Source: a virus. From it: 63,051 bases of DNA. The translations under genes were made by a program, and so were the position numbers. The stretch lies in the IMG/VR virus record IMGVR_UViG_3300036845_000466, positions 1 through 63,051 of that record. One strand, written 5' to 3'. The notes under the pieces are model-generated. The model was not told the origin of the DNA and made no database searches. It saw only the letters and a list, made by a program, of their open reading frames with translations. This document shows, in pieces, positions 456 through 35,000 of this stretch (positions within the stretch are counted from its first letter, which is position 1; each line of letters begins with the position of its first letter).

Positions 456-1121
456 CTACTCCCGTTCCGTCGTGCTCAGGTCGCGGTGGTCGGCCTCGGC
501 CCACAGCGTGTCCCAGTCGACCGGTTCGGGATCGACCACGGACAGGATGCGGAGCTGGTAGGTGAGCACCGCGTCGAGCATCCGCTGGTTCTGCGCCTGC
601 ATGCCCGCGATCGCGTCCAGCCGCGCCTCGAGCCTGGCCAGGCGGTCATCCGGCTGGCTCAGCCTGGTGGGCACGACCTGCCCGGCGGCGTTGTTCGCCA
701 GGGCCTTGAGCCGGCCCGCCGGGCTCGAGGGGTCGGGGTTGGCTACCTGCTCCAGGACGGGCACGATCCGGCCGTCGCCTGCCAGGGCAGCCTGCGCCGT
801 GATGTCGGGCTGTGCAGGAGCGTCATCCGGCTGGGCGGCCGGGTCGGGGATCGCGCCGGCCGCGATCGCCTGCCGCAGGGCCTGGTCTTTCTGGTACTCG
901 GGCACGGCGAGATTGTAGCCCGTGATCGCCGCATCGGCCCGGGTAAGCGACTTTTCGTCACTCTCGGCCACCGAGCGGTCGCGGACCTGGTTGAGCACGC
1001 GCAGAATGCCTGTCGGTGTGCTCACCTTACCGGGCGTCACCTCGGCGAAATACCGTGCGAAATACCCCACCTGGTCATCGCGTTCCTGCTGGTCCTTGAC
1101 CCACTGCGCGAACGTCGCCAT
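456..1121 (-). CDS. Hypothetical protein, 221 aa, C-terminal coiled coil
   Basis: Unrecognised. I start it at ATG 1121 (MATFAQWV) because GGGAGATGATCGGG directly upstream matches the ribosome-binding site used across this phage; an ATG three codons earlier would sit on that site. The N-terminal 60 residues look globular and basic/acidic (WVKDQQERDDQVGYFARYFA). The middle is rich in Pro, Ala and Asp. Residues near 155-200 (RLARLEARLDAIAGMQAQNQ) have a heptad pattern and probably form a coiled coil. It is the second gene after the origin-like region on the leftward operon. Confidence 0.7.
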   Translation of the reverse strand: MATFAQWVKDQQERDDQVGYFARYFAEVTPGKVSTPTGILRVLNQVRDRSVAESDEKSLTRADAAITGYNLAVPEYQKDQALRQAIAAGAIPDPAAQPDDAPAQPDITAQAALAGDGRIVPVLEQVANPDPSSPAGRLKALANNAAGQVVPTRLSQPDDRLARLEARLDAIAGMQAQNQRMLDAVLTYQLRILSVVDPEPVDWDTLWAEADHRDLSTTERE

Positions 1122-1188
1122 CCCGATCATCTCCCTCTCTGCCTATTCCGATTCTACCTTATACGCACTGTCTGGTATGCCATCCGGT

Positions 1189-1230: not shown

Positions 1231-1467
1231 CTAAGCGTTGTCAGTCTCTGACATCATCCGGCCTTCGCGTTTTGCCTGCAGCGCCTCGAGCAGCTCGTTC
1301 GCGAACTTCTCCACGTCGTCGTCCGAGATATCGCTCAGGGTACCCAGGTGGCCCCCGGCAGGACCGTACGCACTTGCCCAGGCATTCGGCCGGCCGCTGC
1401 CGAACAGCGTCAGCATGAACTTGCGTCTGTCCGCAGATTCCAGGCAGATCGTACGTCTGGGGGTCAT
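1231..1467 (-). CDS. Hypothetical protein, 78 aa, next to the candidate origin
   Basis: Unrecognised. The start ATG at 1467 follows AAGGGAGAGATC, this phage's typical ribosome-binding site. The N-terminus is basic (MTPRRTICLESADRRKFM). The C-terminal half is acidic and helical (DISDDDVEKFANELLEALQAKREG). It is the first leftward gene after the repeat-rich stretch at 1468-1761. A fifth copy of CAGGCAGAT (1441-1449) lies inside its 5' end. It might act on that DNA, but this is only positional reasoning. Confidence 0.65.
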   Translation of the reverse strand: MTPRRTICLESADRRKFMLTLFGSGRPNAWASAYGPAGGHLGTLSDISDDDVEKFANELLEALQAKREGRMMSETDNA

Positions 1468-1487
1468 GATCTCTCCCTTGGTCGTTT

Positions 1488-1760
1488 GTACGCTTTTGTC
1501 TCAAGAAGTTTCTCATACGGAGAAAAGCTCTGTGAAGGCTGTTTCTCACGCGTGTAGAGTTTTTTATATTACCGTACAAAGCGTACAAACGTACAAAGTA
1601 AGTAAGTATTCCCAGCTCATACAGTGTTCCGGCTCTTGGACACTCTCTGTACGCTTGTACGCTTCCATCCAGGCAGATGGCAGGCAGATCCAGGCAGATG
1701 GCAGGCAGATGCTCAGATGGACGGCCAGACGGGCCGAAGCGTACAAAGCTCTGTACGCTT
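1488..1760. repeat. Iteron cluster, candidate replication origin
   Basis: The gene-free stretch 1468-1761 is visibly richer in A/T than its surroundings. The 8-mer GTACGCTT or its complement occurs six times: 1488-1495(+), 1579-1586(-), 1649-1656(+), 1657-1664(+), 1737-1744(-) and 1753-1760(+). The shorter CGTACAAA is found at 1573, 1582 and 1590. An AT-rich run (GTTTTTTATATTA, about 1559-1571) could be an unwinding element. The cluster sits just downstream of the helicase and primase genes. Iterons, an AT-rich element and adjacent initiator-type genes are the usual signs of an origin, but the function is inferred. Confidence 0.6.
1670..1710. repeat. Direct repeat array CAGGCAGAT x4
   Basis: CAGGCAGAT is repeated at 1670-1678, 1681-1689, 1691-1699 and 1702-1710, with start-to-start spacing of 11, 10 and 11 bases, close to one helical turn. 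A degenerate copy follows (GCTCAGATGG, 1711-1720) and an isolated copy lies at 1441-1449. Such phased short repeats suit a protein that lines up along one DNA face. They lie inside the candidate origin, between GTACGCTT copies. Confidence 0.75.
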
Positions 1761-1761
1761 T

Positions 1762-3354
1762 TCAGACGGGCCGTACATCCGGTAAGACGCGCCATCTGTC
1801 TGTACAGGCAAGACCTCTGAACACGCGGACACCGCTGTGCTCCATCGGGTACTTCCGCCCGATGATCTCGTTGAAGGTCTTGCGCTTGACCGGCTGGACG
1901 CCCTCGGAGTCGCACCAGTGCACCCGGTAGGCTTCCCAGAGCTTGCCGCGCTCGGCGCACTTGTACACCGGATGGTCGCCGCCGACCTCGGCCAGCAGGC
2001 CGTCTGCGATGTACTCGGACACGAACCGCAGCGCGTCCTCGGTGTCGACCGCCATCCGCTCGCGCAGCTCGATCACAGACAGCGGCAGCTCGGGCAGGCC
2101 GTTGCGCGCCTCCCAGGCCACCGTGTCCAGCAGCAGGCGCAGGATGCCGTTCCGCTCGCTTTTCAGCCGCTCGAGCAGGTCCAGGTCGGGCACGTCGTAC
2201 CCGGCCTGGAACAGCACAGCCTCCTGGCGGGACATCATCGCGTCGTCGGCGGTGTTGAACCGGATGGGGTTGTTGGAGCCGATGAACGGCGTGCACTGGG
2301 GCTTCCAGGTGATCGGCTTCTCGTACTTGCCAGCCGTGCGCTGGGCATCGCGGCCGGTCAGCTGCTTCATGAACGACACGTCGTACAGCGCGCCCGCATT
2401 CGGCTCGTGGGTGTAGACGAACCTCGCGGCCATCAGGTCGTGCTGGCGGAACCCCGCATCGCCTGCGTGCTTGGCCAGGAACGTCTCTACCGGCACCGGA
2501 CGCGCGTAATCGCCCGCAATGTACGCTATAAGGTCAGTAAATGTCGATTTGCCGCTGTCACGGCGCCCGATCAGGTTGAGGAATCCCTTGCGGCGCTGCA
2601 GGCCGAACAGGGCGCCCGCTACCCGCCACAGCAGCCAGAAACGCTGAGGGCCGTCCGGCATGCTCTCGCGCAGGAACCGCTCGAAGACCGGGCACGCCGC
2701 ATCCGGGTCCCAGGCCACCGACTTGCCGGTCCGGCGGGTGATCATCGCCCCGGAGTCATGCGGTCTCAGCTTCACGTAGCCGTCGCGCAGCACCTGGCTG
2801 TAGTCGATCACCCCGTTGTCCACGACGATCGAGCCGGTGCCCGCGTCCACCTCGGACATATCCACGCTGAACGCCTGCGTGAGCTGCTTCTGCACCGCCG
2901 CCTGGCCCTGCTGGTTCCATATCCGGGCCACGAACGCGCGGTGTGTCTTCCAGCTCTCGGCTGCTCTCTTCATCATCCGGTCGCGGTCAGCAGCCAGGCC
3001 GGCGATCACCTCGAGCACGCAGTCCCATACGGTGTCGAACGCCTGTTTGAGCCAAGAGGCCAGCGACTGCGACATCCGGTCGGCAAAGGTCACCTGCTGC
3101 GGCGCGTACCTGCCCTCGCGCTCGTCCCACACGTACCAGTTGTCCGTCTGCTTGCCGTAAATAAACGGCGATCCGGCCGCCTCGGACATCCCGCGCACCG
3201 ACGCGGCCAGCTCAAGGTCGGACCTCGGCAGCCCGGCCATCGTCCAGGTGGCGGAGGTGTCAACGGCTCCGTCAGCGTCGTGAAAAATGAACCAGCAGGG
3301 CGTATACGGCCGGCCGCGCGTTCCTGCTCTGTCTGGGCAGCACGGGGCCGCCAT
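1762..3354 (-). CDS. SF3/P4-type (D5-like) replicative helicase
   Basis: Probable ATP-driven replication helicase of the phage/plasmid primase C-terminal (P4/D5) class, expected to unwind DNA at the origin. Visible motifs: Walker A GRRDSGKST at about 263-271, Walker B RFVYTHEP at 311-318, and SF3 motif C TPFIGSNNP at 355-363. The N-terminal 250 residues resemble the D5_N region; the C-terminus looks like a small DNA-binding domain. It follows the Prim-Pol gene, so the usual primase-helicase fusion is split in two here. The start is uncertain: ATG 3354 lacks a clear ribosome-binding site, whereas AGGAAAGGA precedes an ATG at about 3408 in another frame. Confidence 0.85.
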   Translation of the reverse strand: MAAPCCPDRAGTRGRPYTPCWFIFHDADGAVDTSATWTMAGLPRSDLELAASVRGMSEAAGSPFIYGKQTDNWYVWDEREGRYAPQQVTFADRMSQSLASWLKQAFDTVWDCVLEVIAGLAADRDRMMKRAAESWKTHRAFVARIWNQQGQAAVQKQLTQAFSVDMSEVDAGTGSIVVDNGVIDYSQVLRDGYVKLRPHDSGAMITRRTGKSVAWDPDAACPVFERFLRESMPDGPQRFWLLWRVAGALFGLQRRKGFLNLIGRRDSGKSTFTDLIAYIAGDYARPVPVETFLAKHAGDAGFRQHDLMAARFVYTHEPNAGALYDVSFMKQLTGRDAQRTAGKYEKPITWKPQCTPFIGSNNPIRFNTADDAMMSRQEAVLFQAGYDVPDLDLLERLKSERNGILRLLLDTVAWEARNGLPELPLSVIELRERMAVDTEDALRFVSEYIADGLLAEVGGDHPVYKCAERGKLWEAYRVHWCDSEGVQPVKRKTFNEIIGRKYPMEHSGVRVFRGLACTDRWRVLPDVRPV

Positions 3355-3467: not shown

Positions 3468-4553
3468 CTAACCGGCGGTCCTGTCCGCCGGCCCGGGAGT
3501 TATCAGCTCCCGGGCCGGCCCGCTCTGCGGGGTAAGTGAGACTCTACGACCGGTTGCCCCGGTTTGCGCATCCCCTCGCCGTAACCGGTTCCAGGGCCTT
3601 CGCTCGAGCCAGCCGAGGAATTCGGCATTGCGGGCGTTCTCCCTGGCTGTCGATGTCTCGACGAACCGCCTGGCCGATTCGGCGCAGGTCAGCACCTCGT
3701 TCCAGCCGAAATCCGTTTTGTCCGTATTGGCATAAATGCCCCTGATGATCTCCATCACCTGGGCTGATCCGGCTGTGTGCGTGCCGTGCCGCCGGTACAG
3801 CCCGCAGGCCGTCCGGTACAGCTCCCGGTTCCGCATCCCGGGCGGCAATCCGGCTTGCATGTAGGTTTCGAGTACCTCGTCCACCGGGGCACCGGATACG
3901 GTTCCCCCGCCAGCGCGCGGAGCCGGCGGCGCCTCGGCCAGCCACTGGCCGAACCAGGGCGGAGCGTCAGGCACCGCATGCGGGCACCCGCCCGCCTGCT
4001 CGTACGGGACCGGCACCTCGCCCGATCCGCGCTCCCCGGGCCGGCTGGCGGGCTGGATCATCGCCATCGACGGCGGGGCGACCACCAGGCCGCCGTCCCC
4101 CTTGATGTCGACGCCAGGGAGGATGCCAGGCCGTTCGGGCGTGGCCTCCGCGCGCATCCAGACGTGCCAGCCGCCGCTGGGCGTCTGCACGTGCGGCGCC
4201 CAGTACGGCACAGACGATCCCATCCGGCTAAGGAACGCCAGCCACTCCCCCGGCCCGTCCTGCCCGCCTTTCACGTCCAGGTCGACGACAGCCAGCCGGT
4301 TGTCGCTCCCCGTAGCCACCCCGATGTTGGCCACCATGTCCAGCCCCCACCAGTCCATGATCTGGTCCGGGTCTTTGCTGGCCAGGTGGATGCCGCCCCG
4401 GTCGCCGAGCATCTGGTGCGGTCGCTTGCCGCCGCGCGCGAGCGGGATGACGGCATATCCCAGAGCTGCGTACCTCAGCGCGGCGGCGCCGAGCCCGTAC
4501 CGCTTCGGCAGCCGGTGATCCGGTTCGAAGTAGAAGCAGCTGCAGTCAGACAT
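3468..4553 (-). CDS. Prim-Pol (archaeo-eukaryotic primase superfamily) DNA primase/polymerase
   Basis: Bifunctional DNA primase/polymerase of the AEP superfamily, 361 aa. It should make primers for phage replication together with the helicase encoded next to it. Visible features: the metal-binding DxD in AVVDLDVK (D91, D93), the nucleotide-binding SGGWH (H130), and GVDIKGDGGLVVAPPS (D149), all in family order. Residues from about 210 on form a helical C-terminal region of unclear role. Its start overlaps the upstream small gene by 8 bases. The helicase gene begins about 110 bases downstream, so the pair is probably co-transcribed. Confidence 0.88.
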   Translation of the reverse strand: MSDCSCFYFEPDHRLPKRYGLGAAALRYAALGYAVIPLARGGKRPHQMLGDRGGIHLASKDPDQIMDWWGLDMVANIGVATGSDNRLAVVDLDVKGGQDGPGEWLAFLSRMGSSVPYWAPHVQTPSGGWHVWMRAEATPERPGILPGVDIKGDGGLVVAPPSMAMIQPASRPGERGSGEVPVPYEQAGGCPHAVPDAPPWFGQWLAEAPPAPRAGGGTVSGAPVDEVLETYMQAGLPPGMRNRELYRTACGLYRRHGTHTAGSAQVMEIIRGIYANTDKTDFGWNEVLTCAESARRFVETSTARENARNAEFLGWLERRPWNRLRRGDAQTGATGRRVSLTPQSGPARELITPGPADRTAG

Positions 4554-6772: not shown

Positions 6773-6951
6773 CCCCCGTACCGTACTGCGACGTGCACGG
6801 CCGGATGCAGCACGTCGTTGCGTGCAGGTGGTGGAGATGCTCCGGGTTCGACGGCGAAGGCTGTTCTGTCCAGTTCATCACTGACGAGCTGGTAGCACAC
6901 TGCATGTGCAGCCGCCTGCCTGGTGCGGGAATAACGCTGGTGCTGGAATGA
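6769..6951 (+). CDS. Small Cys/His-rich protein, 60 aa
   Basis: Coupled to both neighbours by ATGA overlaps. Cys and His residues are spread as YCDVHGRMQHVVAC, then CSGFDGEGCS, then AHCMCS, consistent with one or two small zinc sites. It lies immediately before the DNA polymerase gene. A nucleic-acid-binding accessory role is plausible by fold and position only. Confidence 0.65.
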   Translation: MTPVPYCDVHGRMQHVVACRWWRCSGFDGEGCSVQFITDELVAHCMCSRLPGAGITLVLE

Positions 6952-8738
6952 CCGAGCTGGCCGAGCGCGGCAACGCCATCCGGTCAGGCGGTGCTCTCGA
7001 TGGGGTCCGTCTTCACAAGGTCGCCGACGTGGAAACGATGCTCGCGTTCCTGCGCTGGGCAGGCGAGCGCCGTGACGGACCGATCGCGGGCGACACCGAG
7101 TCGGGCGGGCTGAGCCCGTACCACCACCGGATGCGGCTGGTCCAGGTCGGCGACAAGCAGCACGGCTGGGCATTCGGTCCCGGGTGGCACGGCGCGGCGG
7201 TCGAGCTGCTGAAGAAGTACCCGCAGGTCATCTGGCACAACAGCCCGTACGACTGGCGGGTGATCCGCCAGCATACCGGGACCGAGCTGCCGTGGGAGAA
7301 CATCGAGGACACGCTGACCGGCGGGCACATCATGGACTCGCTCAAGCCGGCCGGGCTGAAGCCGCGCAGCGCGATCGAGGTCGACCCGCGCGCGATCGCG
7401 GGCGAGGCGGTGCTGACCGAGGGCATGCGGGCCAACCACTGGACCTGGGACACCGTGCCCGAGGACTGGGAGCCGTTCTGGTGCTACGCCGCGCTCGACA
7501 CGGTGTGCACCGCGCACCTGTGGGACAAGTTCGGCCCGAGCCTGACCACCGTGTACCGCGAGGCTTACGACCTGGAGAAAGCCGTCACCAGGATCAGCGC
7601 GCGGATGATGGACACCGGGATGGCCGTCGACCTGCCCTACGTCCGCGACAAGATCGACCGGATCAGCGGGTTCCGGGTGCAGGCGATGGCCTGGCTGAAG
7701 GAAACCTACGGGATCACCACGGTCGGCAGCGGGCCGCAGGTGATGAAGGCATTCAACGCGGCCGGCATCCCGACGCTGCTGTGGACCGACAGCGGCCAGC
7801 CGTCGATCAGCAAGGACGCGCTGAAGCTCTACGCCAACATGTACCCGGAGCACGCGCACCTGGTGAAGACGGTGGCGCTGTGCCGCAAGGCCGGCGACAT
7901 CGTGAACAAGTACCTTAATAAGTTCCTTGACCTGCAGCTCGACGGCACCATGCACTACACCATCAACACCTGCCGGGCCCGCACCTCGCGCCAGTCGGTC
8001 ACCGACCCGCCGATGCAGACGTTCGACCGCGACGAGCCCGTCATCCGGGGCAGCTTTATTCCCCGGCCGAAGCACAAGCTGGTAAGCATCGACGCCGACC
8101 AGATCGAGATGCGGATGACCGCGCACTTCAGCGAGGACCGCAACCTGATCGCGGATTTCAAGGCGGCCGACGAGACCGGGCAGTCGTTTTTCGTGCTGGC
8201 GGCCAGCGGGATCTTCGGCGAGGAAATATCCAAGAAAGACCCGCGCTACAGCCGGACCAAGAACGCGTCATACGGCCAGATCTACGGGGCCGGCCTGGCG
8301 CAGGCGGCGGCCACGGCCGGGGTGACGGCCGAGCAGATGTCCGGTCCTTACTACGGTTTCCAGCAGCGGTACCCGGACGTGTTCCGGCTGATGGAACGGC
8401 TGATCCGCCAGGGCAAGAAAGACTCCAAGCCGCATGCGGTCGCGGTCGACGGCAGGAAGCTGGGCGTCTACCGGGGCCACGAGTACGCGATCCTCAACAC
8501 GATGGTGCAGGGCTCGGCCGCCGTGGTACTCAAGCGCAACCTGATCGACCTGGACGCGCACGGGTTCGGCCCGTACCTGCGGCTGACGATCCACGACGAG
8601 TTCCTGCTCGAGTTTCCCGAGGAAATCGCCGAGCAGGGACTGAGGGAAGCCGAGCGCATCCTGACCGACCGGGAGACCTTCCGGGTGCCAATCACCTGGT
8701 CAGGCAAGGTACTCGAACACAGGTGGGTGAAAACGTGA
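6948..8738 (+). CDS. polA: Family A (Pol I-like) DNA polymerase with 3'-5' exonuclease
   Basis: Phage replicative DNA polymerase, 596 aa; it lacks the 5'-nuclease domain of bacterial Pol I, as is usual in phages. The proofreading domain keeps its residues: D49-x-E51 in GDTES, HNSPYDW (Exo II) and CYAALD (Exo III). Polymerase motif A is SIDADQIEMR (about 380-389). Motif B is RTKNASYGQIYG (436-447), with Tyr where many family A enzymes have Phe before GxxYG. Motif C is IHDEF (548-552). I start it at ATG 6948, coupled by ATGA to the small Cys-rich gene. Its stop overlaps the next start (GTGA). Confidence 0.97.
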   Translation: MTELAERGNAIRSGGALDGVRLHKVADVETMLAFLRWAGERRDGPIAGDTESGGLSPYHHRMRLVQVGDKQHGWAFGPGWHGAAVELLKKYPQVIWHNSPYDWRVIRQHTGTELPWENIEDTLTGGHIMDSLKPAGLKPRSAIEVDPRAIAGEAVLTEGMRANHWTWDTVPEDWEPFWCYAALDTVCTAHLWDKFGPSLTTVYREAYDLEKAVTRISARMMDTGMAVDLPYVRDKIDRISGFRVQAMAWLKETYGITTVGSGPQVMKAFNAAGIPTLLWTDSGQPSISKDALKLYANMYPEHAHLVKTVALCRKAGDIVNKYLNKFLDLQLDGTMHYTINTCRARTSRQSVTDPPMQTFDRDEPVIRGSFIPRPKHKLVSIDADQIEMRMTAHFSEDRNLIADFKAADETGQSFFVLAASGIFGEEISKKDPRYSRTKNASYGQIYGAGLAQAAATAGVTAEQMSGPYYGFQQRYPDVFRLMERLIRQGKKDSKPHAVAVDGRKLGVYRGHEYAILNTMVQGSAAVVLKRNLIDLDAHGFGPYLRLTIHDEFLLEFPEEIAEQGLREAERILTDRETFRVPITWSGKVLEHRWVKT

Positions 8739-10729: not shown

Positions 10730-10932
10730 GCGCACGCCGTCCGGCCGGCCGCGCGGGAACCGGGCCTGCGGGCCCGGCCGGCGTACGGCCGGGCGGCATG
10801 ACCATCTGGCTGGGTGACCCGGAACTGTGCACCTGTGCCACCTGCATGGAATGTCCCTGTGATACCAGTCATCCATCCGGCCGGTGCGCCTGCTGCCGCG
10901 CCGGGCACCATGACGGGAGCTGCGAGAACTGA
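10726..10932 (+). CDS. Small Cys-rich protein, 68 aa
   Basis: Starting at GTG 10726 keeps the GTGA overlap; an alternative ATG at 10798 would drop 24 low-complexity residues. The conserved-looking part is a Cys/His cluster, CTCATCMECPC then CACCRAGHHDGSC, which should bind one or two metal ions. It ends TGATG into the SNF2 gene. Role unknown. Confidence 0.6.
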   Translation: MSARRPAGRAGTGPAGPAGVRPGGMTIWLGDPELCTCATCMECPCDTSHPSGRCACCRAGHHDGSCEN

Positions 10933-12800
10933 TGGCCTGGGCTGCGATCGACCCGGACGAGCACGGCAAGGGACCCTGGCTGGCGGTCGGCTGCGCCAGG
11001 TCTGAGTTCCATCTGTGCGAGCAGGTCCCCGGAATGAACTACCGCAAGACGGACGGGCTCTGGCGGGCGCCGCTGAGCTGGCCTGCCTGGGTGGCGCTGA
11101 AGACGCTGTGGGCCGGCCAGCCGCTCAGCGTGCACCCGCGCCTGTCACAGTGGGCTGACCAGCAGTGGCAGCTGGTCCTGGCCGCCTACGAGCGCCGCTC
11201 CACGCTGGACGCGGGCAGCCCGGCGGTGCGCAGCTACCTGGACGTGCTCGACGCCGAGACCGGCCAGGGCATGTTCCCCGCTCAGCGCGGCGGCGCCCAG
11301 TGGCTGTACCAGATGGAGCGCGCGGTGCTGGCCGACCCGCAGGGCAACGGCAAGACCCCGCAGCTGATCCGGGGCATCCAGCTCGCGCGCAGCCTGGCCG
11401 GCGGAGCCGGCTCCTGGCTGGTGATCGCGCCGGCCGCCGCGCTCTACAACTGGGAGCGCGAGCTGCACCGCTGGGCGCCCGAGCTGAGCGTCCGGGTGAT
11501 CGACGGCACCGCCGCCAAACGGCGCAAGCAGATCATGGACGAGGGCGAAGCCGACGTGTACGTGATCGGCTGGAAGACCGTCCGGCTGCATACCCGGCTG
11601 GCCGCCTACCCGGGCAAGGAATTCGTCAAGTGCGACGAGCACGGCGGCGGCACCGGCAAGACGGTCGCCCAGTGCGAGGTGCACGACAAGGAACTGAACG
11701 ATATCGCCTGGTCAGGCATCATCGCCGACGAGGCGCACCGGATGAAGGACGCCGGCTCCAAGCAGACCCGGGCGGTCTGGCACCTGGCCCACGGCGCGAT
11801 GTTCTTCTGGCCGGCTACCGGCACGATCACCGGCGACACGATCGAAGACCTCTGGCCGCTGCTGCACGGCATCAACCCCCGGGCGTTCCCGTCTAAATCG
11901 CGGTTCATGTCCCTGTACGCGGTCAAGATGCTGGCCTGGTCCAAGGGGGCCGAGTTCCTGGGGGTGCGGCCGGAGACCGCGCAGGCGTTCCACGCGACCG
12001 TGCAGCCGCTGATCCGGCGCATTCCCAAGGACATCGCCAGGCCGGGCATGCCCGCCCGCTTGTCTGCTGTTTTCCGCAACCCGGAGCTGAGCCCGGCTCA
12101 GAAGCGGGTCTACGACCAGCTGAAAAAGCAGGCGGTGGCCCAGCTCGAGTCGACGGACATCAGCGCGGACAACAGCGCGGTGATCTTCGGGCGGATGTGC
12201 CAGGCCGCGTCCGCCATGCTGGACACCGCCGACGCCGAGGACAGCGACGGATTCCACAAGCAGGCCGTCAAGATGGTGGCGCCCAGCAACAAGGTCGACG
12301 ACCTGATCGACTTCCTGTCTGACAATCCCGGCCAGCTGGTGGTCTGCATGAACAGCCCGCAGCTGCTCCACCTGTGCGAGAGCCGGCTGGCAGCCGAGAA
12401 GATCACGCACTGCGCGATCTACGGCGGTCAGACGGCCAGCCAGAACGACCAGGCTGTGCAGTGGTTCCAGAAAGGCGAGTGCCGGGTCATCATGATCACC
12501 GCCGGCACCGGCGGCGAGGCGATCACGTTGACGGCGGCCGATACGGTCGCCTTCCTGCAGCCCAATCCGTCGTTCCTGGTGAACGAGCAGGTCATCGGAC
12601 GTGTCGACAGGATCGGTCAGCCGAACCCCGTGCGCGTTGTGTACCACATAACACCTGGTACAGTCGAAGAGAGGCTATTCCAGCTCAGTCAGGACAAGGC
12701 CGTACGCACCGAGCAGGTGACCCGGGACCCCGACCTGCTGAAGTGGATCATTACCGGCGAGGGCGCGTACGCCCCCGCCCAGGGAGAAGATGTCCGGTGA
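10932..12800 (+). CDS. SNF2-family (SF2) DNA helicase/translocase
   Basis: ATP-dependent dsDNA translocase of the SWI2/SNF2 class, 622 aa, probably used in phage recombination or replication-fork remodelling. Motif I is DPQGNGKT (135-142), motif II DEAH (266-269), and motif VI QVIGRVDRIGQ (553-563); both RecA-like lobes are present. Between lobe 1 motifs there is an unusual insert, C234-x2-H to C248-x2-H251, that looks like a small zinc knuckle. The N-terminal 120 residues carry no family motif I recognise. Coupled by TGATG upstream and GTGA downstream. Confidence 0.93.
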   Translation: MAWAAIDPDEHGKGPWLAVGCARSEFHLCEQVPGMNYRKTDGLWRAPLSWPAWVALKTLWAGQPLSVHPRLSQWADQQWQLVLAAYERRSTLDAGSPAVRSYLDVLDAETGQGMFPAQRGGAQWLYQMERAVLADPQGNGKTPQLIRGIQLARSLAGGAGSWLVIAPAAALYNWERELHRWAPELSVRVIDGTAAKRRKQIMDEGEADVYVIGWKTVRLHTRLAAYPGKEFVKCDEHGGGTGKTVAQCEVHDKELNDIAWSGIIADEAHRMKDAGSKQTRAVWHLAHGAMFFWPATGTITGDTIEDLWPLLHGINPRAFPSKSRFMSLYAVKMLAWSKGAEFLGVRPETAQAFHATVQPLIRRIPKDIARPGMPARLSAVFRNPELSPAQKRVYDQLKKQAVAQLESTDISADNSAVIFGRMCQAASAMLDTADAEDSDGFHKQAVKMVAPSNKVDDLIDFLSDNPGQLVVCMNSPQLLHLCESRLAAEKITHCAIYGGQTASQNDQAVQWFQKGECRVIMITAGTGGEAITLTAADTVAFLQPNPSFLVNEQVIGRVDRIGQPNPVRVVYHITPGTVEERLFQLSQDKAVRTEQVTRDPDLLKWIITGEGAYAPAQGEDVR

Positions 12801-32069: not shown

Positions 32070-35000
32070 CAGCTGCCTCCGCGCGGGTACCTGTTACGGA
32101 ACGACGCCGCCGCAGCAGATCCGTTGATCGCGCTGCCGACGTGCCGCCCGACGCCGGCCGGCACCGAACCGGTCACGGCTGTCAGCTGCTGGAGGTCAGC
32201 GTGCAGCTGGTCGAGCTTATCGCTGAAGTCGCCGCCGCTGCCTGAGATGACCGGTTCTGGTCTGCCTGTGCCGTTGTACGCCAGGGTGTAGCCAGGCTGC
32301 AGGTAGCCGCCCTTGTCGTACCAGCCGTAGCCCAGCTCGTGAGCCCAGGCAGCCTCCGGGTCGCCGTACCGCTGCTTGATGTAGTTGAGCATGCCGGTGA
32401 TCTGGCCGGCCGCCGTGGTCGAGTTGCCGCCGTACTGGGCGTACTCAGACGGTCCGTTGATGAACTGGGCCAGGCCGTAGGCGCCGCTGGTCGGGTTGGT
32501 GGCGTTGATGTTGAAGCCGGCCTCGCGGTTCTCCACCTCGTCCAGGGCGATCCATTCAGCGCCGGTCCAGCCGACCGAGGCGGCCATGCTCTGCATCAGC
32601 GCCTGCACGGTCGCGCCGGAGCCGGACGGCTTGAGCGTGGCGCTGCCCGTGCCCTGGCCGGTGGCCTTGTTCGGCTGGCCGATGATCCACTTGGCGAAGT
32701 CGCCGACCAGGGTAGCGGGCATGCCGAGCAGCGCCCGGCCGACTATGCCGCCCATTCCCCCGGAGCTGGAACCGCCGAGCAGGTCAAGGACGGCGTTAGA
32801 CAGGGCGGTCGGGTTGCCGGTGGCGATCGCCAGCACCGCCTTGCCCAGGTCAGCGACGCCGCCGAGCACGTTCCCGCCGGTCGGATTCTGCGCGCCGAGA
32901 ACGGCGCCACGGCCGGGGGCAGGGGAGCCGACAGCGCCTCCGGTCGCGAAGCCGGGGACGCCCATCATCTTGAACAGCCAGCCGTATTCCCTGGTCTTGT
33001 CCTTGTCGATGACAGCCTCGCCCGGCTCGAGCAGGGCAGGCACGCTGTCGCCGCCGCCGTAGCCGGGCAACTTGCCACCGCTGGCCAGGGTGATCAGCGG
33101 GATCTTGAGGCTTCCCAGGCCGACTGCGTTGATCACGCTGTCGAACAGGCCGATCAGCTTGTCCAGCACGTTGTTTACGACGAACTTGACCGGGCCCTCG
33201 ACCGCGCCCTCGACCTTGCCCCAGACGCCCGAGATGGCACTTACCGCCGTGTTGAACCAGCCGGGCATGGTCTTGGTGAACAGGTTCTGGATCGGGTCGG
33301 CGACGTTTTTGACAACCCAGTTGTATGCGCCCTGCAGACCGCTCTGGAACGGGGCGATAAATTTCGTCCGCATGAACGATATGGCGCTGTCGAATCCGCT
33401 GGGAATTGTCTTGGTGAAAAAGTCGACAACGGGGGTGACAAAGTGTGCGTCGATCCAGTTGAGCACCCCGGTCAAAGTGCTCTGAACAGGGATTACGAGC
33501 TTTGTCTTCAGGAAATTCACCGTGTCGTCCCAGGCATTGGGCAGCGACTTGGTGAACCAGTTGATCATGGGGTCGATGAAGTCGTTGAGCATCCACTTGT
33601 AAACGTCGTCGCCGACCGACTTAACCGTGCCCCACACCGCGCTCCAGTGCGTGACCAGCTCGGATATTCCGACCACCAGCAGCGCGATCGCGGCGATGAT
33701 CAGCCCGATCGGGTTGGCTAGCAGCTCGGCGTCGAGGATCGTCTGGATCGCCGCCCACAGCTTCATGGCGCCGACGATGGCGAGGACGCCGGCCACGATG
33801 GCGCCGAGCACCGAGGGCGGAATCGCGTTGATGATGTCTGCCAGGGCGGTCGCTACCGACTGGATCACCTGCGCGATGGACGCGGTGAAAATGTTAGCGA
33901 ATTCGAGCAGCAGCGGCAGGATCACCGGCAGGACCGTGGTCAGCACCTGGAGGACCCCGACGACCAGCTTGGTTATCGACGGCAGCAGCGTCTCGATGGC
34001 GTTCGACAAGGTGGTGGCGAGCAGCCCTGACAGCTGCCCGATGAACTGGATGACCGGCGGCAGCAGTGGAGCCAGGCCGGTCAGGATCAGGTTGATCAGC
34101 TTGGCCAGGGGTCCGGCCAGGTTCTCGAGCGCGTCCCCGAGGATGGCGAAGGTGCCGGTATTCTCCAGCACGGTGAACACCTGGCTGATGGCGCCTGCGA
34201 ATGCGCTGAGCCCGGGGGCAATTCCGATAAGCAGCTGCGCGAGGGCACCGAAAGCGGACACCAGGTCACCGAGAATTGCCCCGGCCAGGTTAGCGATAAT
34301 AGACCCGATAATGGTCAGCGGGGGCGTAAGCGCCTTTACTACCCCGGCAAACTGAGCGATTATAGGCGCCAGGTCTTTAGCAAAAATGTCGGCCAGTTTG
34401 GCGACGACGGGCAGCAGCCCGCCGACCAGGCCGAGCAGCGCGCCGAGTACGGACATCGACGCGCGGACGGCCGGTGCCAGGTCAGCGAACAGGGCGCCCA
34501 GGTCGCCGCCGAACGAGGCAAGGATCTTGACGAACTCGCCGATGACTGGCACGGTAGCCTTGGCGACAATCGCCAGGCCAGGAAGCAGACTCGATACTAG
34601 TTTCTCAATGGCGACGATGAACGGTCCGAAAGCGGGCGCCGCCGCCTGCATCAGGGAGATCAGCCCTCTGATGATAGGGACCAGCCCGTTGAACACGCTC
34701 TGCAGCTGAGGTGCTACAACTTTGAAGATGCCCGCAAGCTGGGGCTCGAGCGACTTCAGCAGCTTCGGCACCTGGCTGAGCACGGCCGACAGCGCTGGGA
34801 TAATCGGGCCGGACGCCGCCGCCAGCACAGCCTTGGCGTCGGTGCCGATCGCCGAGAACTGCGCCTTGATCTTGGGCGAGCTTTTCGCGACAGCGGCCAC
34901 CAGGCCGCCGATCAGCGCCACGCCGATGCCGACGCCGGCGATGCCGCCGAGCGCGGGCAGGGCGGCCAGGCCGGCGCTGACCGCCCCGGTGATCAGCGCC

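What the first reader, a model, noticed from the sequence alone, without database searches (positions are those of the whole stretch)
1468..1761. Iteron-rich candidate replication origin beside Prim-Pol and SF3 helicase
Six copies of GTACGCTT (both orientations), three CGTACAAA and four phased CAGGCAGAT repeats lie in about 270 AT-richer bases without a gene. A given 8-mer would be expected far less than once in this length. The neighbouring helicase is of a class that often recognises its own origin.
Basis: partly seen in the sequence, partly recalled or inferred. Interest (0 to 1): 0.68.

Follow-up and report, generated by a model that had tools for sequence, protein, structure and literature searches.

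The report
Phage replication origin beside its helicase
The 295-base stretch right after this phage's initiator-type helicase gene is packed with short repeats in the same layout as known satellite-island and phage replication origins, so it is very probably where copying of this phage's DNA begins; the same layout recurs, with different repeat words, behind the helicase genes of many unrelated phages.

Summary
Window 1468-1761 carries eight GTAC-centred iterons (TTTGTACGCTT and close variants), in both orientations and 8-9 nt apart in tandem, plus four CAGGCAGAT repeats. It is the most AT-rich and (coding low-complexity aside) the most repeat-dense segment of the genome. It lies between the stop codon of an SF3/D5-type helicase with a predicted C-terminal winged helix and the next ORF; a separate Prim-Pol gene is upstream.

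The only close relative found (a 71-kb collinear phage) has, at the same place, the same arrangement built from a different word (TTTGGAAC), private to that spot. Among SF3-helicase phage loci, the segment just 3' of the helicase is often the most repeat-rich one, with 9-nt tandem units in opposed sets. The annotated origin of Streptococcus phage Sfi21 and the tested origins of phage-inducible islands (SaPI/PICI) are organised the same way.

Best reading: an iteron origin read by the phage's own SF3 helicase, which loads as opposed rings, opens the DNA and lets Prim-Pol prime. Helicase binding and replication are untested, and GC skew does not help. This is a new member of a known kind. The wider pattern across full-size phages is the more interesting part.

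The parts
1468..1761 (-). candidate origin: noncoding iteron region immediately 3' of the SF3 helicase gene
   Evidence: syntenic region in L127/G007
1485..1495 (+). iteron TTTGTACGCTT (single, distal)
1573..1597 (-). tandem set of three iterons read on the - strand (TTTGTACGTTTGTACGCTTTGTACG, spacing 8 and 9)
1647..1664 (+). tandem set of two iterons, CTGTACGCTTGTACGCTT (spacing 8), facing the set at 1573-1597
1598..1646 (.). spacer between the two opposed iteron sets; with their inner units the sets form a 20-nt, 90% complementary inverted repeat (DNA fold z = -4.65)
   Evidence: (I1)
1558..1572 (.). AT-rich tract next to the triple iteron set, candidate unwinding element
   Evidence: sequence; lowest 20-nt GC bin, 0.25
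1737..1760 (.). inverted pair of iterons AAGCGTACAAAG/CTCTGTACGCTT, directly behind the helicase stop codon
   Evidence: (I7)
1670..1710 (+). four CAGGCAGAT repeats at 10-11-bp phase, a second repeat type; role unknown
   Evidence: also clustered in the same region of G007
1762..3354 (-). SF3 (D5-type) helicase, candidate initiator; predicted C-terminal winged helix (residues about 466-517)
3468..4553 (-). separate Prim-Pol (AEP primase-polymerase)
1231..1467 (-). 78-aa ORF after the iteron region, not detected in the relative; may not be a gene
456..1130 (-). conserved gene of unknown function (g3) that directly follows the iteron region in the relative
6948..8738 (+). family A DNA polymerase of the same phage

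Best explanation
Window 1468-1761 is the phage's replication origin, read by its own SF3 helicase (1762-3354). Inferred mechanism: the helicase's C-terminal winged helix binds the 8-9-nt GTAC iterons. Two opposed tandem sets (1573-1597 and 1647-1664) position two helicase assemblies facing each other across about 50 bp, probably as opposed hexameric rings. The AT-rich tract at 1558-1572 or the spacer melts, the separately encoded Prim-Pol primes the exposed strands, and the phage's family A polymerase extends them. Shown here: the repeats, their geometry, their position and its conservation, the protein families and the predicted fold. Inferred: binding, melting, priming and the choice of reader.
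For: (1) Repeat array beyond chance and confined to one place: 6 of 7 GTACGCTT and 5 of 5 CGTACAAA in the genome; lowest-GC segment of the genome. (2) The only close relative found, G007 (helicase 63% identical, collinear and circularly permuted), has a syntenic 490-nt gap with iterons of another word, TTTGGAAC, in opposed tandem sets with 7-8-nt spacing. The longer words TTGGAACTT and GGAACTTT occur nowhere else in its 71 kb. A changed word in a kept place and layout is what a co-evolving initiator-origin pair should give. (3) Across SF3-helicase loci fetched by protein only, the segment just 3' of the helicase stop is the most repeat-rich one in 38 of 73; in the first set, seeded from named phages without regard to repeats, about 20 of 76 rank in the top 2%. 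De-duplicated arrays: 9-nt tandem spacing in 72 of 152 against 16 of 155 in other repeat-rich windows; both orientations in 33 of 35 against 26 of 51; facing distance 49-52 nt in 16 of 58 against 1 of 46. (4) Streptococcus phage Sfi21's annotated origin lies 3' of its primase gene and has the same layout: two tandem 8-nt units on each side of an AT-rich stretch. (5) Helicase relatives with known function: profile match to the primase-helicase of SaPI5, 7ola (E 1.5e-25; fold TM 0.71 on target). SaPI Rep and SCCmec Cch2 bind iterons directly 3' of their own gene through the C-terminal domain (PMC7581432), and PICI origins consist of two iteron sets flanking an AT-rich region 3' of rep (PMC6092414). 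(6) The model has a confident C-terminal winged helix (pLDDT about 90). (7) No ParB, HTH_3 or tyrosine integrase family in the genome.
Against: No binding or replication data. GC skew does not switch at the iterons: fourfold-site skew is -0.137 on one side and -0.131 on the other, and the cumulative minimum is 3.3 kb away, at the divergent-transcription boundary. A test of whether iteron words follow the helicase C-terminus more than its core was negative (partial r 0.07, 188 of 1000 permutations), so the reading domain is assigned by analogy. About half of the SF3-helicase loci, mostly long primase-helicase fusions, lack a detectable array there. The spacer between the opposed sets is only moderately AT-rich.
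Confidence: 0.85

Rival explanations
1. Operator array: the GTAC repeats are sites of a transcription regulator controlling the genes downstream of the helicase, and not an origin.
For: Multiple short palindrome-centred sites between genes are typical of operators; the region lies upstream of the next ORFs on the same strand; one weak promoter-like match is present.
Against: No other clustered copies anywhere, not even at the divergent promoter region near 5.1-5.2 kb. No HTH_3 repressor family in the genome. The promoter-like match points against the genes. The 9-nt opposed-set geometry recurs behind helicase genes of unrelated phages, which a local operator would not predict.
Confidence: 0.08
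2. Origin-like region whose reader is another protein (host DnaA-like or a phage factor); the helicase is only recruited.
For: A second, differently phased repeat (CAGGCAGAT) suggests a second DNA-binding protein; iteron words track the helicase core as well as its C-terminus.
Against: The GTAC word is unrelated to DnaA boxes (own knowledge of the DnaA-box consensus). The word changes completely between two relatives whose helicases are 63% identical, while the arrangement stays tied to the helicase gene in many phages.
Confidence: 0.07
3. Centromere-like partition site or packaging (pac) site.
For: Iteron clusters also serve as parS/parC; the genome appears circularly permuted, which fits headful packaging.
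Against: No ParB_N; the site is not beside the terminase genes (terminase at 57.6-59.3 kb); position is tied to the SF3 helicase across phages.
Confidence: 0.03

Closest known systems
PICI / SaPI rep-ori replicons (SaPI5, SaPIbov1, E. coli PICIs; PMC6092414, PMC7581432)
   Same: Initiator-helicase gene with the iteron origin immediately 3'; opposed sets of short iterons; D5-type helicase with C-terminal DNA-binding domain; words differ between elements.
   Different: Here it sits in a 63-kb phage with its own terminase, portal, tail genes, PolA and a separate Prim-Pol; no integrase found. [quoted passage not shown]
Origin of Streptococcus phage Sfi21 (AF115103, annotated 34487-34784)
   Same: About 300-bp noncoding region directly 3' of the D5-type primase gene; two tandem 8-nt units on each side of a central segment in opposite orientation.
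   Different: Different word (AGTAACTA), strongly AT-rich centre, unrelated host and genome; no second CAGGCAGAT-like repeat seen.
SCCmec Cch2 origin (PMC7581432)
   Same: D5_N/Primase_Cterm helicase binding direct repeats downstream of its operon.
   Different: Three 5-nt iterons only; chromosomal cassette; primase is CCPol-MP, not Prim-Pol.
pRN1 ORF904 origin (PMC4234260)
   Same: Prim-Pol plus SF3 helicase with C-terminal winged helix; essential origin 3' of the gene; the region can fold into a long stem with a loop of similar size (20-nt arms and 46-nt loop here, 21-nt stem and 58-nt loop there).
   Different: pRN1 is described as a stem-loop without iterons; Prim-Pol and helicase are fused there.

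Membership tests
PICI/SaPI-type rep-ori origin (as an origin type) | Origin lies immediately 3' of the gene for an SF3/D5-type initiator helicase | tested here: met
   Region starts at the helicase stop, 1761/1762
PICI/SaPI-type rep-ori origin (as an origin type) | Two sets of short iterons in opposite orientation | tested here: met
   Three units on - (1573-1597) facing two on + (1647-1664), plus outer copies
PICI/SaPI-type rep-ori origin (as an origin type) | Sets flank an AT-rich melting region | tested here: inconclusive
   Spacer is AT-richer than the genome, but the most AT-rich tract (1558-1572) lies just outside one set
PICI/SaPI-type rep-ori origin (as an origin type) | Helicase has a C-terminal DNA-binding (winged-helix) domain | tested here: met
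   Predicted only, pLDDT about 90; SaPI5 structure 7ola among fold matches
PICI/SaPI-type rep-ori origin (as an origin type) | Helicase binds the iterons; rep-ori fragment replicates autonomously | not testable with these tools
   Needs experiment
PICI (as an element) | Small satellite with integrase, relying on a helper phage for structural genes | tested here: not met
   63-kb genome with terminase and portal; no tyrosine integrase family. It is a phage, not a PICI.
Sfi21-type phage origin | About 300-bp noncoding region 3' of D5-type primase/helicase with opposed tandem iterons | tested here: met
   Same layout computed for both
pRN1-type stem-loop origin | About 100-bp stem-loop 3' of the replication gene | tested here: met
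   Opposed iterons give a 20-nt inverted repeat with a 46-nt loop, DNA fold z -4.65; whether it extrudes is unknown
pRN1-type stem-loop origin | Fused Prim-Pol-helicase and no iterons | tested here: not met
   Separate genes; iterons present
ParABS partition site | ParB-type protein encoded by the element | tested here: not met
   PF02195 absent from the genome

The most novel reading that the evidence does not exclude
The rep-ori organisation thought to be peculiar to phage satellites (PICIs) is the common origin type of full-size phages that carry a stand-alone SF3 helicase. It has a fixed geometry (9-nt tandem units, opposed sets about 50 nt apart) and a rapidly changing word, so that related phages such as this one and G007 have mutually private origins. 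Satellites would then have inherited a phage replicon.
Probability: 0.5. Interest if true: 0.65.

Novelty: new member of a known kind. Interest (0 to 1): 0.5.

Why it matters
Origins of most environmental phages are unknown. A rule that reads the origin and its word directly from the segment behind the SF3 helicase gene makes them predictable, gives matched initiator-origin pairs with different words for studying how an SF3 ring recognises and opens duplex DNA, and extends an origin type described as unique to phage-inducible islands to full-size phages.

Tried and rejected
Direct DNA or single-sequence protein search for relatives: no match in the phage records by blastn, in viral contigs or in genome contigs; only alignments reached relatives. 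GC skew, whole-sequence and fourfold sites: inconclusive. Iteron word against helicase C-terminus with the core controlled: not significant. Rfam in the region: nothing. Sigma-70/terminator scan: one weak promoter on the wrong strand, no terminator. Bordetella phage BMP-1, a relative of BIP-1 for which PMC4234260 proposed a pRN1-like stem-loop: no iteron array behind its long ORF, only short inverted matches. Rhizobium phage RR1-A: no array directly behind its primase. The idea that CGTACAAA is a separate repeat family was dropped, because it overlaps the GTACGCTT unit.

Full report
What is there. Window 1468-1761 separates the stop codon of a - strand SF3 helicase gene (1762-3354) from the next - strand ORF (ATG at 1467). 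It holds six GTACGCTT and five CGTACAAA, which are two views of one unit, AAGCGTACAAA/TTTGTACGCTT. It also holds four CAGGCAGAT at 10-11-bp phase. No dinucleotide shuffle of 2000 comes close. The region is the lowest-GC and, with low-complexity words left out, the most repeat-dense part of the genome.

The genes. The helicase matches D5_N and DUF5906. A profile of 61 relatives matches ASFV C962R, the SaPI5 primase-helicase 7ola and poxvirus D5 in the PDB. The AlphaFold2 model (mean pLDDT 87) ends in a helix-helix-strand-strand winged helix at residues 469-517, and Foldseek returns the same proteins. Upstream is a separate Prim-Pol. The rest of the replication set is on the + strand: family A polymerase, SNF2-type helicase, PD-(D/E)XK exonuclease, Sak4-like and SSB-like proteins. 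No tyrosine integrase, ParB_N or HTH_3 was found.

The relative. One contig, IMGVR_UViG_3300043788_000078 (G007, 71 kb), has a helicase 63% identical and is collinear but cut at another point, so both records look like near-complete, circularly permuted maps. Behind its helicase is a 490-nt noncoding region with iterons of a different word, TTTGGAAC/AAGTTCCA, again in opposed tandem sets 7-8 nt apart. In G007 every TTGGAACTT and GGAACTTT lies in this region, and the 13.5-kb locus around it (L127) has no GTACGCTT or CGTACAAA. CAGGCAGAT is clustered in both regions. Along the helicase, identity is 82-86% at residues 251-350 but 42% and 27% in the last two blocks.

The wider pattern. I fetched SF3-helicase loci by protein alone and scored every 300-bp window for repeated 8-mers. 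In the first set (seeded with named phages, no selection for repeats) about 20 of 76 loci have a top-2% window right behind the helicase stop. In a second set, which is biased because its query alignment contained array-bearing phages and which overlaps the first, the best window of the locus lies there in 38 of 73 (26 of 36 for ORFs under 650 aa, 12 of 37 for longer ones). In 35 de-duplicated arrays the tandem spacing is 9 nt in 72 of 152 cases, against 16 of 155 in the next best repeat windows and 7 of 168 in random windows. Both orientations are present in 33 of 35, against 26 of 51. Facing sets are 49-52 nt apart in 16 of 58, against 1 of 46. Words are diverse, and some arrays are related by descent, so these counts are not independent events. 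In the window the spacings are 8, 8 and 9, and the facing sets are about 60 nt apart in the same measure. Cultured phages with arrays include AmM-1, Pan4 and RcapNL; RR1-A lacks one.

Known precedents. The Sfi21 record annotates its origin as a 302-bp noncoding region at the end of the primase gene; my scan finds there two tandem 8-nt units facing two others across an AT-rich stretch. For SaPIs, Rep recognises, through its C-terminal domain, iterons found directly downstream of its gene; Cch2 of SCCmec does likewise (PMC7581432). For PICIs the region immediately 3' of the initiator gene is the origin, with two iteron sets flanking an AT-rich region, and a rep-ori plasmid replicated; that paper says no other known bacterial replicon shares it (PMC6092414). 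The pRN1 origin is a 100-bp stem-loop 3' of its Prim-Pol/SF3 gene (PMC4234260). The window's opposed iterons form a comparable inverted repeat (20-nt arms, 46-nt loop; fold z -4.65). That pRN1's stem-loop might be a degenerate form of opposed iterons is my speculation.

What does not support it. GC skew is uninformative here: no switch at the iterons, and the minimum 3.3 kb away coincides with divergent transcription. The iteron word does not follow the C-terminal domain better than the helicase core. About half of the SF3 loci have no array. No experiment has been done on this phage, and its host is unknown.

Verdict. Origin function is the best explanation (0.85). As an origin type it works like PICI/SaPI and Sfi21 origins and meets most of their testable features (the AT-rich centre is inconclusive); as an element it is a phage, not a PICI. 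It is a new member of a known kind, with a broader pattern in full-size phages that would be worth a specialist's attention if confirmed.

Noticed in passing
window 1670-1710 and 1441; L127 7597-8033: A second repeat, CAGGCAGAT, at one-helical-turn phase in the window, is kept in the same intergenic region of both relatives although the iteron word changed; its reader is unknown.
   Followed up: partly
window 5.1-5.24 kb, 23.7 kb: Transcription changes strand: replication genes on - (to 5.1 kb), DNA-metabolism genes on + (5.2-23.7 kb), structural genes on -. AT skew follows this; GC skew does not reverse at 23.7 kb.
   Followed up: partly
window 10932-12800: SNF2-type helicase in a phage that also has an SF3 helicase and PolA.
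   Followed up: no
window 26.7-27.4 kb and 29.5-30.2 kb: Highly repetitive low-complexity coding stretches in tail-region genes (glycine-rich domain in one), among the most repeat-dense other parts of the genome.
   Followed up: no
G007 about 54.4-54.7 kb: The relative has what looks by eye like a tRNA flanked by a direct repeat, between the terminase side and the replication module.
   Followed up: no
window 456-1130: Gene g3, unknown function, 41% identical over 81 aa to the gene that directly follows the iterons in G007; conserved at the origin edge.
   Followed up: partly
L217 6781-6972: A more distant SF3 phage has CGGTATAC/CGGTAAAC repeats behind its helicase, too few to reach the top score.
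   Followed up: partly
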